From Rhodovibrio salinarum DSM 9154 (lineage in GTDB: Bacteria; Pseudomonadota; Alphaproteobacteria; Kiloniellales; Rhodovibrionaceae): 64,000 bases of DNA. Each line of letters opens with the position of its first letter. Positions within the stretch are counted from its first letter, which is position 1. The translations under genes and the position numbers were made by a program. The notes beneath the pieces are model-generated. The model was not told the origin of the DNA and made no database searches. It saw nothing but the letters and a program-made list of their open reading frames with translations. The stretch is from contig NZ_KI911559.1 of assembly GCF_000515255.1 (NCBI RefSeq), positions 2,925,660 to 2,989,659 of the forward strand, read 5' to 3'. Below, in pieces: positions 48,221 to 53,292 of this stretch.

Positions 48221-48601
48221 TTAGTTCTGTCCCAGGATCATGTTCGTGTTCTCAAGGTAAGTCTCGGCGTTGTCCTTGACCGCCTTTTCGTTACGCTTCT
48301 CGCTGGCAAGATGCATGCCCTCGAGGACGCTGGCGATGTTCTTCAGATCCTTGTCCACGCGCTGCAGGGCGTTCTCCAGCGTGTAGCTAAGCTGGTGGAT
48401 CTTCTCCATATTCTCGACGGTCATCTCCTGGGAGAGAAGCTCGTCGAGTTTCTGATTGTATTCGCGCAGATTCTTGACCGCGACCTCAAGGTTCGGGGCC
48501 GGCTTGGCCTTATAGTGCTGCACTTGGCCATCGCTATCCGCCAGGGCGGGACCACCCGCGAGCAGACCAAGGGACAAGACGGCGGCTGCAAGTCGCTTCA
48601 T
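48221..48601 (-). CDS. DUF6746-family periplasmic protein
   Basis: This 126-residue protein has a signal peptide (MKRLAAAVLSLGLLAGGPALA). A helical, charged mature part follows: NLEVAVKNLREYNQKLDELL, MEKIHQLSYTLENALQRVDKDL. It resembles the DUF6746 family, which has no known role. The helix pattern suggests a small coiled-coil or four-helix bundle. It lies 79 bp downstream of pseudoazurin on the same strand and may share its transcript. Confidence 0.75.
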   Translation of the reverse strand: MKRLAAAVLSLGLLAGGPALADSDGQVQHYKAKPAPNLEVAVKNLREYNQKLDELLSQEMTVENMEKIHQLSYTLENALQRVDKDLKNIASVLEGMHLASEKRNEKAVKDNAETYLENTNMILGQN

Positions 48602-48680: not shown

Positions 48681-49133
48681 TTACGACCCTTCGGCGGCCA
48701 GCAGCGGTTTCAGACGCTTGCGCGCAAGATTGGGGAGATCCGAAACCTTCTTGCGCACCTCATCGAGGTTCTTCGAGGCATCGCCGACCTTCACCACGCC
48801 GACCATCCCGGAATAGACGTGCGGCAGGCACTTGTAGACGTAAGTCCCCTCGACCTCGAACGTGACCTCGAATTCTTCGTTGATCTGGCCCCCGAAACCC
48901 TCGGCTTCTTTAGGGATCATGCCGTCAACGCTCTGCGCATTGTGGCCCTTGTCGACCACCGTGAAATGGACCGTATCCCCCGGCTCGATCGAGACCGACG
49001 CAGGCTCGTAGGCCATGAAGTCACCCGTTTCGCTCTTGTTGAGCATCTTGACCTCAATCGTCTCGGCCGCGGCCGGAGCAGCAACCAGCCCCACCAACAT
49101 GGCAGTAGCCAACAGCGTGTTTTTAATCGGCAT
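48681..49133 (-). CDS. Pseudoazurin (type 1 blue copper protein)
   Basis: This 150-residue periplasmic electron carrier is known in the family to donate electrons to nitrite or nitrous-oxide reductase or to cytochrome peroxidase. Signal peptide cleavage is at AAA-ETIEV (residue 23). The copper ligands are all present: His64 (DKGHNAQSV), Cys102, His105 and Met110 (CLPHVYSGM). The C-terminal helices are typical. I start at the ATG at 49133, since the longer open frame has no signal peptide. No denitrification gene is in the window, so its partner is unknown. Confidence 0.93.
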   Translation of the reverse strand: MPIKNTLLATAMLVGLVAAPAAAETIEVKMLNKSETGDFMAYEPASVSIEPGDTVHFTVVDKGHNAQSVDGMIPKEAEGFGGQINEEFEVTFEVEGTYVYKCLPHVYSGMVGVVKVGDASKNLDEVRKKVSDLPNLARKRLKPLLAAEGS

Positions 49134-49230
49134 TTGACCTCCCAAAGGACGTATTAACCGGCACGAACGCTTGCCAGAACTCGACGTGATCTGTTCGAGC
49201 CTGAGCGGATGTGCCGTGTCGGATGTGTTT

Positions 49231-49258
49231 AAATGCAACTGCACCTCATATGCAATAA
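49231..49258 (-). promoter_or_regulatory. Operator-like 28-bp element upstream of pseudoazurin
   Basis: Read on the minus strand, the core is TGCATATG-N5-CAGTTGCA, an imperfect dyad preceded by TTAT and followed by TTT. Its near edge is 97 bp before the pseudoazurin ATG. It matches the element at 49486-49513 in 25 of 28 bases in the same orientation relative to its gene. It is probably a repressor or activator site shared by both genes. Confidence 0.65.
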
Positions 49259-49485
49259 CAATACGCCGCCAGCGATACCTTGTCGCGGCACGCGATAACG
49301 GACCCCGCACACCCGCAGCACCACACGCTATATCGGCAGGCAGCCTCCCCTAGGTTTGGGAACGGGCCCCTGCGCTCTGCCCTCGCCGTCGTGTCGACGG
49401 TCTCCACGGGCGCGAGGATCGAACGAGAAGGACCGGCGCCAAAGCCCCATCCTCAGCTGCGTCCGATCACCGCAGTACGCCCTAC

Positions 49486-49513
49486 TTATTGCAAATGAGT
49501 TGCAGTTGCATTC
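49486..49513 (+). promoter_or_regulatory. Operator-like 28-bp element upstream of the porin
   Basis: The core is TGCAAATG-N5-CAGTTGCA (49490-49510), a 21-bp dyad with eight of ten outer base pairs complementary. The near edge is 61 bp before the porin ATG. It is a near copy of the element at 49231-49258. The remainder of the 441-bp divergent region (49134-49574) holds no convincing gene. Confidence 0.65.
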
Positions 49514-49574
49514 CTATCGCACCGGGATCCCCTCCGGACTCATGCGCCGGCACGCTAGGTATGAGGAGATATCA

Positions 49575-50687
49575 ATGCCTGCATTCAGAGTTTCGAAAGC
49601 CGCCGTCACGGCCTTGCTCGCCGCCAGCGTCTATCCAATAGCTGGCCATGCCGAAGAAGATACGATCTTCCCACGCGTCGACGTTGAAATACCGATGGAG
49701 CTGGAGAACGACTATACCGCCTCATCAGAAGATGAAGACGCGGAAATAAACGATCTCTTCGCGACGATCGAGCCCGGCATCAGCGTTCGGTTTACAAAGG
49801 AGCTATCGATCGAAAGCTCCTTGGTTTTCGAGCCGGTTCAGGACCCGGATGCAGGTGACGATCGCTTCCTTGAAGATCATGGCCTTTATGCGGAGGAAAT
49901 CTTCGTCAACTACGAAACCGAACGGTTTGCCGCCTATGCCGGTAAATTCAATCCGACCTTCGGGACCGCCTGGGATATCGCCCCCGGCATCTTCGGTACC
50001 GACCTTGCTGAAGATTACGAGATCACCGAGCGCATCGGCGCCGGTGGGGCCATCAAGTTCGGTGGTGACGGGTTCGGGGCCGGCGATTTCGGCGAACACC
50101 GACTCGCCCTGAACGGCTTCTTCGCGGATACCACCGCGCTCAGCGATTCCCTCATTACCAGCCGGGGCGAACTCGATCTGGACGATGGCGGCCCCAGCAA
50201 CACGGAAGATCTGTCGTCCATGTCCGCCACCCTGGATGGCGGCAACATGCCGGGAGTGCCCGTCAACTACCATCTGGGCGTTCAGTTCCAGGAAGGCGGC
50301 CGCGGAACGCCGGAAGACCAGACCGGCTACGTCGTGGGCCTCAACGGCAGCTACCCCCTGACCCCCACCATTACGCTCGAACCGATGGTGGAAAACGCTT
50401 ACTTCGAGGACTTCGGCGGCGTCCAGGAAAACCGCAACTACCTAACCGGCGGCGCTTCCCTGCTCTACGGCCCATGGAATGCCGCTGTTTCCTATACCAA
50501 TCGGCACGTCGACCCAGAAGGCGAGGACTCGTTCAGCGACGATCAGGTGCAGGTTTCCGCAGGCTATGCGTTCGCAAATGGCCTGACCCTCGATGCCGGC
50601 TACAAATACACCGAAGATGCAGGTACGCACGCGCATGTCATCGGCGCGCTACTCACCTATAACTTCGCGTTCTCCTACCCGAACTGA
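49575..50687 (+). CDS. Outer-membrane beta-barrel porin-like protein
   Basis: This 370-residue protein has a signal peptide (MPAFRVSKAAVTALLAASVY, cut near GHA-EED). An acidic barrel with alternating strands follows, for example ISVRFTKELSIESSLVFEP, GYVVGLNGSYPLTPTITLEP and ASLLYGPWNAAVSYTNRHV, ending in a strand ALLTYNFAFSYPN. The EEIFVNYETERFAAYAGKFNP segment is common in proteins annotated as alphaproteobacterial porins. I start at the ATG at 49575 because GAGGAG precedes it and the signal peptide begins there. The frame is open back to 49356. Substrate unknown. Confidence 0.85.
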   Translation: MPAFRVSKAAVTALLAASVYPIAGHAEEDTIFPRVDVEIPMELENDYTASSEDEDAEINDLFATIEPGISVRFTKELSIESSLVFEPVQDPDAGDDRFLEDHGLYAEEIFVNYETERFAAYAGKFNPTFGTAWDIAPGIFGTDLAEDYEITERIGAGGAIKFGGDGFGAGDFGEHRLALNGFFADTTALSDSLITSRGELDLDDGGPSNTEDLSSMSATLDGGNMPGVPVNYHLGVQFQEGGRGTPEDQTGYVVGLNGSYPLTPTITLEPMVENAYFEDFGGVQENRNYLTGGASLLYGPWNAAVSYTNRHVDPEGEDSFSDDQVQVSAGYAFANGLTLDAGYKYTEDAGTHAHVIGALLTYNFAFSYPN

Positions 50688-50922: not shown

Positions 50923-51087
50923 TTAGGCCGTCGCGGCCGCCTTGTCTGCTGGCTGGTATTCACCGCACCAGTCGTTCGCGGACACGATCGGCCAATGCGC
51001 GTTCTTGGCATCCGCAGTCGGCTGCGGGGCATACCGACGGCATTGGGTCTGCGCGGCGTGGAAGAAACGGCAGTTGTTGCACTGCAT
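50923..51087 (-). CDS. Small four-cysteine protein, 54 aa
   Basis: ATG at 51087 on the minus strand opens a 54-residue frame: MQCNNCRFFHAAQTQCRRYA, then PQPTADAKNAHWPIVSANDW, then CGEYQPADKAAATA. The cysteines at 3, 6, 16 and 41 sit in a C-x2-C-RFF...C-RR-xAP...WP-x5-DWCGE pattern. I recognise this as a widespread but uncharacterised small-protein pattern, which suggests a zinc or iron-sulfur site. A GGGGG stretch precedes the ATG, and a strong terminator follows the stop. Three Fur-like boxes lie 106-191 bp upstream. It is too short for most ORF callers. Confidence 0.8.
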   Translation of the reverse strand: MQCNNCRFFHAAQTQCRRYAPQPTADAKNAHWPIVSANDWCGEYQPADKAAATA

Positions 51088-51192
51088 GGGAAGATACCCC
51101 CGTTAATTGGTTGGCGCGAATTCTGATTGGCGACCTTCAATATCGGCACTGAGGATGCGGAGGTCAAGTAGTTCCTGCCGATATTTTATAAT

Positions 51193-51278
51193 TGAGAACG
51201 GTTTTCATTATTTCTTTATTGGTGAGAATGAATTTCATCTACCGCCTTTCAAAAAAGTGCCTCTGAGAACGAACTTCA
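51193..51278. promoter_or_regulatory. Cluster of three Fur-like boxes
   Basis: Three 15-bp near-palindromes of the 7-1-7 type: TGAGAACGGTTTTCA (51193-51207), TGAGAATGAATTTCA (51223-51237) and TGAGAACGAACTTCA (51264-51278). Their starts are 30 and 41 bp apart, close to whole helical turns. The pattern resembles the Fur core TGATAAT-N-ATTATCA. The region is strikingly AT-rich for this genome. It lies upstream of the four-cysteine gene. The third box runs into CAGTTGCATT, which is also present in the pseudoazurin and porin elements. Confidence 0.65.
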
Positions 51279-51515
51279 GTTGCATTTTCTAGGCGAACAA
51301 CACATGGACGCCGCAGGCGTGCTCGGGCACAACCCGCATGCTCTCAACGAGGGGATGGTGTGGGCGTGTCAGGACCATCGCCCGCATGCTCGGAGGGTCA
51401 CCGGGGCCGTTCTGCGTCATGGCCGTCGTTCGCGGGCATCGTCGCGCACCGCCAACCGACAGGATTGGTCAGGGACGCGCGGACGTGCAAGCCTGCGGCA
51501 CGCGACCGGACGGAC
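51279..51515. other. Noncoding stretch beyond the Fur-like boxes
   Basis: This stretch lies between the box cluster and the stop of the membrane-protein gene. It holds an 11-bp direct repeat (CCCGCATGCTC, near 51333 and 51381). Short rightward frames exist, but their Arg/His/Gly-rich products look like antisense noise. I see no supported gene. Confidence 0.4.
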
Positions 51516-53234
51516 TCAGGCAGTGACCGGGTGGCCAGCATGGGCCGGCGTCGACGATTGATCGGGGTCGCTCACGTCCAAGCCGCTGCGGATGAAGCTG
51601 CGGAAAAAGACGAAGGCACCCGCGCCGACGGCACACAGGAACCAAGCGACGTTGACCGTCTGCGGCTGGGCGAAAAAGTGCATCAGCCCACCCACGCGCA
51701 ACGCCAGCAGCCAGGCATGCAGGCTCTCGGAGGTCATCAGGACAAGCGTGACGTTGAACACGGCGATCGTCAGCGCGTAAGTCGCCGAGACAGTCACCAC
51801 ACGCCGCGGGGCGAAGTAGACAACAGCGAACCCGGCATCGAACTCCGCCTGCCGATCCCGCTCGATCAGCTTGGCGAAGAACACCAGAATCAGGAACGGC
51901 GTGATCAGATAGGTCAGCAGATACGCCCAGTAGGAAGCATCGTCGACCGGGAAATGGGCGGCCAGGCTGCGGATCCGCTCGGTCTCGGCGATCAAGGCTG
52001 CGGCATCGACAAACGGCGCTATCACGGCTGTGCACACCACGGCAGCCCCGGCGGCGCCCACCTGCTTGGACATGCGCGGGCGGTAGCCAGACGCCGTCAT
52101 GAACCACCGTCGCCGGGCGAGCTGGTGGTTCCGGCGCCAGCAATAGACCGCGAGCATCACATAGGTCGGCACCGCGAAGCTCAGCGCGTAGGTGATCCAG
52201 CGGATAACCGGCACGACTTCACCGGCCCGGGCCGGCGCAACCAAGCCGAACAGCACGTTGACAGCCGCCGAGGCGACGAACACCGCAACGCTGCCCTGGA
52301 GCGTCGCGGATAGCACGCGGTCCTGTACATAGCGACGGATGTTGCGGTTCACGACGAACCCCATCTCATCGAGAATCACGTTGACCTCGCGCTGGCGGGC
52401 CGAAGTCTCGGCAACGATCGCGCAGCTCAGCAGATAGGTCAGGAGATCGTAGGCGTCGCGGATCTCACCACGAACGCTGGGGGCGTGTGCGGCCGCCTCG
52501 TCCGATGCCTGGGCGAGATGCGTGCGCAGCGTCTCCGCGATCGCTTCCACCCGGCGCCGGCCATCCTGAAGCTTGGCATCGAAGGTGTGTGATACCCGCA
52601 CGGTCACGTGATTGACCATGGGATGCTCGCTGGTGACCTGATCCAGTGCACGCACGATCAGGCAGCATTTCAGCAGATCCTTGAGCTCCCGTTCGGATAT
52701 GAGTTGCCGCGCCTCATCCAGCGGCAGTTGCGCGCCCAAGTATGCCTTCAGATCGTCCTTAACGGGCTTCTTGATCTTCGCCTCGGCGATCTTGCGACGG
52801 ATGTAGCTATGATCCGACGGGACGCCGGCAATTCGCTGCGCCAGGCCACGCACCGACTCTTCGGCGTGGGCCAGCAGTTGAACGTTCGGGACGATCCCGG
52901 CAAGCGCGAGCGCGAGGTAGAGCGGGAAGGTGTCTTCCGACACCGTGACGCCAAACAGCTTGTTGAGGACGTTGGGACCGAGGCTCAGCAACAGCACGTA
53001 GATCAGGGCCAGCAGCAGAAAATAGATGGCCAAGCCATGCTGAAACCGCCGAAGCGAGGTCAGATCGCTCAGTTTGAAACTTCGGAACTCCTCGGGAAAC
53101 GGTTCGCCGGCGATGTCGTTGAAACGCGTCCGCAGGTTGAGCACGATGAACAGCAGCCCGACGGTAAAGGCCGTAATCGCCTGCACCGTCGGAATTTTGT
53201 CCAGCACGATCGCCATGACGTCAGAGGCTTGCAT
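51516..53234 (-). CDS. Orphan polytopic membrane protein, 572 aa
   Basis: I do not recognise a family. The predicted layout has helices near residues 12-30 (ITAFTVGLLFIVLNL), 65-85 and 100-120. A soluble part of about 190 residues follows (125-305, with EESVRGLAQRIAGVPSD and TVRVSHTFDAKL). Then come about six more helices (LQGSVAVFVASAAVNVLFGL; YLLTYLITPFLILVFF; VNVAWFLCAVGAGAFVFF). It may be a channel, sensor or receptor. I start at the ATG at 53234 because GAGGGGGGG lies just upstream. The frame opens at 53258. It probably shares a transcript with the small peptide gene upstream. Confidence 0.8.
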   Translation of the reverse strand: MQASDVMAIVLDKIPTVQAITAFTVGLLFIVLNLRTRFNDIAGEPFPEEFRSFKLSDLTSLRRFQHGLAIYFLLLALIYVLLLSLGPNVLNKLFGVTVSEDTFPLYLALALAGIVPNVQLLAHAEESVRGLAQRIAGVPSDHSYIRRKIAEAKIKKPVKDDLKAYLGAQLPLDEARQLISERELKDLLKCCLIVRALDQVTSEHPMVNHVTVRVSHTFDAKLQDGRRRVEAIAETLRTHLAQASDEAAAHAPSVRGEIRDAYDLLTYLLSCAIVAETSARQREVNVILDEMGFVVNRNIRRYVQDRVLSATLQGSVAVFVASAAVNVLFGLVAPARAGEVVPVIRWITYALSFAVPTYVMLAVYCWRRNHQLARRRWFMTASGYRPRMSKQVGAAGAAVVCTAVIAPFVDAAALIAETERIRSLAAHFPVDDASYWAYLLTYLITPFLILVFFAKLIERDRQAEFDAGFAVVYFAPRRVVTVSATYALTIAVFNVTLVLMTSESLHAWLLALRVGGLMHFFAQPQTVNVAWFLCAVGAGAFVFFRSFIRSGLDVSDPDQSSTPAHAGHPVTA

Positions 53235-53292
53235 GGCCGCCCCCCCTCGCAAGCGCACAGATCGGGCAAACGCGCGGATCAGTTGTCCGCGT

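What the first reader, a model, noticed from the sequence alone, without database searches (positions are those of the whole stretch)
49231..49513. Pseudoazurin and porin share a nearly identical 28-bp operator in divergent promoters
Seen directly: the elements at 49231-49258 (minus) and 49486-49513 (plus) match in 25 of 28 bases and point the same way relative to their own gene. Each core is a 21-bp dyad, TGCA...TTGCA with an inner TG-N5-CA. A chance match of this quality is very unlikely. Inference: one regulator controls a periplasmic copper electron carrier and an outer-membrane porin together, which suggests a metal- or redox-responsive unit. Pseudoazurin and porin are not an established pair.
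Basis: partly seen in the sequence, partly recalled or inferred. Interest (0 to 1): 0.65.

Follow-up and report, generated by a model that had tools for sequence, protein, structure and literature searches.

The report
Iron-box pair: pseudoazurin and porin promoters
The two nearly identical DNA elements are copies of this bacterium's Fur (iron repressor) binding site, which predicts that a copper electron-carrier operon and an outer-membrane porin switch on together when iron runs short.

Summary
The 28-bp elements at 49231-49258 and 49486-49513 match in 25 of 28 bases, lie 97-125 and 61-89 bp upstream of their own start codons, and are far beyond chance. They are not a private pair. A matrix built only from sites at iron genes elsewhere in the genome ranks them first and second in the window (37.0 and 29.4 bits; maximum in 2 Mb of random sequence 20.1). 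In the whole 4.18-Mb genome a relaxed pattern hits 23 times (reversed control 0), mostly beside fur, fecI/fecR, heme and siderophore receptors and iron ABC transporters. The element is therefore the genome's Fur box, and the signal is iron, not copper. Comparative data agree. The porin's relatives carry the same box and sit in imelysin/di-haem-peroxidase iron clusters. Pseudoazurin genes in several lineages have Fur-like boxes, apparently gained more than once. DUF6746, the gene after pseudoazurin, has a Fur-like box just upstream in all four other alphaproteobacterial genomes found, once as porin <- box -> DUF6746-FTR1 iron permease. Best reading: an iron-starvation-induced periplasmic redox and iron-binding unit with its own porin, feeding iron uptake. 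Iron sparing is the main rival for the pseudoazurin's role. Binding and expression are untested.

The parts
49230..49258 (-). Fur-box-like operator in the pseudoazurin promoter, 97-125 bp upstream of the ATG at 49133
   Evidence: 29.4 bits with a matrix built from other loci; second best in 64 kb
49486..49514 (+). Fur-box-like operator in the porin promoter, 61-89 bp upstream of the ATG at 49575
   Evidence: 37.0 bits; best in 64 kb; one of 10 sites in the whole genome at <=3 mismatches
48681..49133 (-). pseudoazurin, 150 aa, signal peptide, blue-copper ligands His..Cys-x2-His-x4-Met kept
   Evidence: TIGR02375 131 bits, cut-off 109.85; aligns to solved pseudoazurins, E 2e-32
48221..48601 (-). 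DUF6746 protein, 126 aa, 79 bp after pseudoazurin on the same strand; probably co-transcribed
   Evidence: PF20531 137.8 bits; relatives have Fur-like boxes just upstream; invariant ExxH and HxxSE residues
49575..50687 (+). outer-membrane porin, 370 aa
   Evidence: PF13609 22.3 bits, below the 27-bit cut-off; predicted beta-barrel matches porins, Foldseek E 1e-11, prob 1.00
51183..51288 (.). three weaker Fur-like sites in a row, not counted as part of the pair; may serve the small ORF 50923-51087 (-)
   Evidence: 18.3, 17.0 and 16.6 bits

Best explanation
The two elements are Fur operators. When iron is sufficient, the Fur protein (gene at about G000:2480636-2481094, its own upstream region carrying the same box) binds both and represses the divergent pseudoazurin-DUF6746 operon and the porin gene. 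When iron is scarce, repression is lifted and both are made together with TonB receptors, FecI-type sigma factors, iron ABC transporters and an FtrBCD-type permease operon. The products probably work as one iron-acquisition unit: the porin lets small iron complexes or ions through the outer membrane, DUF6746 binds iron in the periplasm, and pseudoazurin moves electrons to or from the iron or its partner redox enzymes. The sequence of the boxes, their genomic company and their conservation are shown here. Repression by Fur is inferred from them, and the division of labour among the three proteins is inference with much lower confidence than the Fur assignment.
For: Matrix from 8 iron-gene sites, window sites left out, puts both elements at 37.0 and 29.4 bits against a random maximum of 20.1 in 2 Mb. 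Genome-wide 10 hits (<=3 mm) and 23 hits (relaxed), control 0 both times. Neighbours are fur, PiuC, FecI/FecR + TonB receptor, Fe3+ SBP, heme receptor/HmuT-like SBP, siderophore receptor + Peripla_BP_2. The fur product is closest to M. gryphiswaldense Fur, 4ray, E 1.1e-27; the other two paralogues are Irr and Zur-like. Porin relatives: all sites >=20 bits in 135 kb of 11 named loci lie directly upstream of the porin (5 loci) or at the head of its gene cluster (2 loci), none elsewhere; neighbours include imelysin PF09375 and di-haem oxidoreductase PF06537. Pseudoazurin-family loci: sites >=14 bits concentrate at -101 to -300 (8 of 49 loci) against at most 1 per other 100-bp bin. DUF6746: 4 of 4 other genomes have a Fur-like box just upstream, one next to an FTR1 permease and divergent from a Porin_O_P porin. 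A. pleuropneumoniae has an iron-ABC operon with pseudoazurin that rises at protein level in iron starvation, log2FC 2.38 (PMC12507848).
Against: No binding or expression data exist for this genome. In the A. pleuropneumoniae study the transcript of that operon fell (log2FC -1.85) while the protein rose. Most pseudoazurins of the class have no such box, so this is not a general trait. No consensus sigma-70 promoter was found around the boxes. Four of 11 porin relatives have no box over 15 bits. The Fur protein here has an altered metal-site motif (ECRHHLVD against EHHDHLID in 4ray). Adjacency of the two genes was not seen elsewhere.
Confidence: 0.8

Rival explanations
1. Iron sparing: Fur controls the pseudoazurin, but its role is to replace haem cytochrome c as periplasmic electron carrier when iron is short, as flavodoxin replaces ferredoxin. 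The porin is a separate member of the regulon.
For: Pseudoazurins are known electron donors interchangeable with cytochrome c in denitrifiers (own knowledge). The Fur box is compatible with this. Repeated gains of boxes by pseudoazurin genes would fit a repeated metabolic advantage.
Against: The operon partner DUF6746 has Fur-like boxes in every genome found and once precedes an FTR1 iron permease. The second pseudoazurin of the genome closes an EitA-like iron ABC operon. No cytochrome c gene under opposite control was looked for.
Confidence: 0.3
2. Another Fur-family regulator (Irr, a Mur-like or Zur-like activity) or a copper regulator uses these sites.
For: The genome has three Fur-family genes, and the Fur metal site is altered, so its metal is not certain.
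Against: The sites flank iron, heme and siderophore uptake genes and fur itself, not zinc, manganese or copper genes. Irr sites are of another sequence type (own knowledge).
Confidence: 0.08
3. Recent duplication of one promoter segment gave two alike copies without shared regulation.
For: 25 of 28 bases match and the copies are inverted and 227 bp apart.
Against: The repeat found ends with the element (27 nt); the porin copy is almost as close to sites at other loci (24 of 28); porin relatives in other genera have the box independently of pseudoazurin.
Confidence: 0.02

Closest known systems
Fur boxes of non-rhizobial alphaproteobacteria (Caulobacter, Magnetospirillum)
   Same: Palindromic box upstream of iron-uptake genes and fur; Fur orthologue of the Magnetospirillum type. 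Rhodospirillales are predicted to have kept Fur as the global iron regulator (PMC3751524).
   Different: Targets a pseudoazurin-DUF6746 operon and this porin family; neither was found in the literature searched as a Fur target.
FtrABCD / EfeUOB cupredoxin-linked iron uptake
   Same: Periplasmic cupredoxin plus iron-binding helical protein plus FTR1 permease under iron control. G305 has DUF6746 next to FTR1; own genome has a cupredoxin-FTR1-Fer4 operon with a Fur box at 2337 kb.
   Different: The window has no permease; its cupredoxin is a true pseudoazurin; an outer-membrane porin is included; DUF6746 is not imelysin.
Fur-regulated imelysin operons (P. aeruginosa PA4370-PA4373; PMC3143127)
   Same: The porin's relatives sit with imelysin and di-haem oxidoreductase under Fur-like boxes.
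   Different: This genome has no imelysin, and that paper's text does not mention a porin.
A. pleuropneumoniae iron ABC-pseudoazurin operon APPSER1_09785-09810 (PMC12507848)
   Same: Pseudoazurin in an iron-starvation-responsive iron transport operon; the second pseudoazurin of this genome has a like layout.
   Different: The window pseudoazurin stands with DUF6746 and a porin, not with an ABC transporter.

Membership tests
Fur operator (Fur box) | Sequence match to the genome's box at independently identified iron genes | tested here: met
   37.0 and 29.4 bits with matrix built without them; random maximum 20.1
[quoted passage not shown]
   61-89 and 97-125 bp upstream of the start codons
Fur operator (Fur box) | Concentrated at iron-related promoters in the genome | tested here: met
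   23 hits in 4.18 Mb, reversed control 0; most beside iron genes, a few neighbours uncharacterised
Fur operator (Fur box) | A Fur protein is encoded | tested here: met
   PF01475 104 bits; closest solved structure M. gryphiswaldense Fur
Fur operator (Fur box) | Bound by metal-loaded Fur; genes derepressed by iron limitation | not testable with these tools
   needs EMSA and expression data
pseudoazurin (TIGR02375) | Score over the curated cut-off | tested here: met
   131 against 109.85 bits
pseudoazurin (TIGR02375) | Type 1 copper ligands His, Cys, His, Met | tested here: met
   GHN and KCLPHVYSGM align to solved pseudoazurins
Gram-negative porin | Pfam Porin_4 over the gathering score | tested here: not met
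   22.3 against 27 bits
Gram-negative porin | Porin beta-barrel fold | tested here: met
   pLDDT 74.5; PDB matches shown are nearly all porins, E 1e-11, but TM only about 0.5
FtrABCD / EfeUOB system | FTR1 permease in the same operon | tested here: not met
   none next to the pair; the genome's only FTR1 is at 2336549-2337316

The most novel reading that the evidence does not exclude
Pseudoazurin, DUF6746 and this porin form a previously undescribed envelope module for iron uptake: a dedicated porin for low-molecular-weight iron, a His/Glu-rich periplasmic iron binder (DUF6746) and a copper protein that oxidises or reduces the iron for an FTR1-type permease. Pseudoazurin would then have a Fur-controlled role in iron acquisition besides denitrification.
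Probability: 0.3. Interest if true: 0.65.

Novelty: new member of a known kind. Interest (0 to 1): 0.42.

Why it matters
Pseudoazurin is usually discussed as an electron donor in denitrification. Its placement under the iron repressor, apparently more than once in evolution, suggests a copper-for-iron role (in uptake or in sparing) that can be tested directly. The analysis also gives DUF6746, a family without known function, a concrete prediction: a periplasmic, Fur-controlled iron-binding protein linked to porins and FTR1 permeases.

Tried and rejected
Private two-gene operator: rejected, the same box is at about 16 genomic places. Promoter duplication: rejected. Consensus sigma-70 promoters around the boxes: none found, so promoter positions stay open. 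RNA structure in the leaders: nothing beyond the box's own dyad, z 0.59 and -1.78. Imelysin in this genome: none. Literature on pseudoazurin with Fur or iron limitation: no paper with 'pseudoazurin' and 'Fur regulon'; P. denitrificans pseudoazurin is described as a putative NtrX target (PMC9409073). The reconstruction paper on alphaproteobacterial iron regulons is not held. DUF6746 has no convincing relative among solved structures. Pseudoazurin genes with a box are not one clade: the label needs 5 changes on the tree. One AT-rich locus (L107, 17 bits) may be a false positive.

Full report
1. The observation. The two elements are at the stated coordinates and match in 25 of 28 bases. They are an inverted pair separated by 227 nt, so each has the same orientation relative to its own gene. 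In the 64-kb window the 21-bp core is found nowhere else at up to 3 mismatches, and shuffles give 0.00. The boxes lie 97-125 bp upstream of the pseudoazurin ATG (49133, with a GGGAGG ribosome site) and 61-89 bp upstream of the porin ATG (49575).

2. What the element is. The window lies in a 4.18-Mb single-contig genome. A generalised pattern hits ten times at up to 3 mismatches, with no hit of the reversed control. The neighbours of these sites, read from ORFs and Pfam, are: a FecI-type sigma factor with FecR and a TonB receptor; an Fe3+-type solute-binding protein; the fur gene, with PiuC next to it; divergent TonB (heme-type) receptor and Peripla_BP_2 genes; a siderophore-type receptor with Peripla_BP_2; and two paralogous operons of unknown function. 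A matrix built from eight of these sites, without the window's two, puts the window elements first (37.0 bits) and second (29.4 bits) in 64 kb; the maximum in 2 Mb of first-order random sequence was 20.1. A more relaxed pattern gives 23 hits at about 16 places, control 0; the new places include more TonB receptors and FecI-type sigma factors, and a few neighbours that I could not assign. The element is thus the Fur box of this genome. Within the regulon the similarity of the two copies is ordinary: the porin copy matches two other sites in 24 of 28 bases.

3. The regulator. Three Fur-family genes exist. The one whose upstream region carries the box is closest to Magnetospirillum gryphiswaldense Fur (4ray, E 1.1e-27). 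The second is Irr (NF045678 over its cut-off) and the third Zur-like. Caulobacter and Magnetospirillum data support Fur as the global iron regulator of these orders (PMC3751524). The Fur protein here reads ECRHHLVD where 4ray has EHHDHLID, so its metal site may differ.

4. The genes. Pseudoazurin is a clear member of TIGR02375 with all four copper ligands. DUF6746 follows after 79 bp on the same strand. The porin misses the Pfam cut-off, but its AlphaFold model (pLDDT 74.5) matches porins among the PDB hits shown, with modest TM scores of about 0.5.

5. Relatives of the porin. Eleven named genomes (Ferruginivarius 58% identical, Rhodovibrionaceae, Kiloniellales, Minwuia, Kordiimonadales and others) hold relatives. 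In 135 kb of their DNA every site of 20 bits or more lies directly upstream of the porin (5 loci) or at the head of its gene cluster (2 loci). Several sit with imelysin and di-haem oxidoreductase genes, the Fur-regulated iron cluster known from P. aeruginosa (PMC3143127). The own genome has no imelysin but has a MauG-like peroxidase and cupredoxin operon with a Fur-like box.

6. Relatives of the pseudoazurin. In 49 pseudoazurin-family loci, sites of 14 bits or more concentrate at -101 to -300 from the domain start (8 loci) against at most one in any other 100-bp bin. On a tree the label needs five changes, so the box was gained or lost repeatedly. The second pseudoazurin of this genome has no box but ends an operon with an EitA-like binding protein, a permease and an ATPase. 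A like layout in A. pleuropneumoniae rises at protein level under iron starvation, although its transcript fell (PMC12507848).

7. DUF6746. It is rare: 5 of 385 alphaproteobacterial genomes. All four others have a Fur-like box just upstream (18.9 to 27.0 bits). In G305 the box lies between a Porin_O_P porin and DUF6746-FTR1, the same divergent porin/DUF6746 plan as in the window but with another family of porins. Five sequences share invariant ExxH, HY and HxxSE residues, which suggests metal binding (inference). The genome's own FTR1 is in a cupredoxin-FTR1-Fer4 operon with a 26.1-bit box, the plan of FtrBCD (own knowledge).

8. Mechanism. Shown here: sequence identity of the boxes, their company, their conservation. 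Inferred: Fur repression in iron sufficiency; joint induction in iron shortage; a porin plus periplasmic iron-binding plus copper electron-transfer unit serving iron uptake. Iron sparing remains the main rival for pseudoazurin itself, and the two are not exclusive.

9. Novelty. The operators are new members of a known kind. The unusual part is the target list: pseudoazurin-DUF6746 and this porin family were not found as Fur targets in the papers searched, which cover open-licence papers only.

Noticed in passing
window 51183-51288: Three weaker Fur-like sites in a row (16.6-18.3 bits) in an AT-rich gap upstream of a 54-aa cysteine-containing ORF (50923-51087, minus) that matches no Pfam family.
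   Followed up: partly
L064 6222-9530 (G000:3899221-3902529): Second pseudoazurin is the last gene of an EitA-like iron ABC transporter operon; a TonB receptor with FecR/FecI and a Fur-like box lies 7-10 kb away.
   Followed up: partly
L140 53-2723 (G000:2335101-2337771): Fur-like box (26.1 bits) before a cupredoxin-FTR1-Fer4 operon that looks like FtrBCD without FtrA.
   Followed up: partly
L078 395-3118: Operon of an unknown protein, a MauG/CCP di-haem peroxidase and a cupredoxin, divergent from PiuC with a Fur-like box between; in Ferruginivarius (L051) the first two are divergent from the porin.
   Followed up: partly
L074 3500-4054 and L075 3456-4073; L056, L059: Paralogous proteins without Pfam match stand under the two strongest Fur-like boxes; a related-looking gene precedes the porin in two Rhodovibrionaceae MAGs.
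   Followed up: no
L078 4137-4595: The Fur protein has ECRHHLVD where Magnetospirillum Fur has EHHDHLID, so its regulatory metal site may be altered.
   Followed up: no
L123 and L124 (G000:117151 and 1688726): Two nearly identical copies of an ECF sigma factor region with the same Fur-like box.
   Followed up: no
window 51516-53258: 580-aa protein, membrane-like, with no Pfam match.
   Followed up: no
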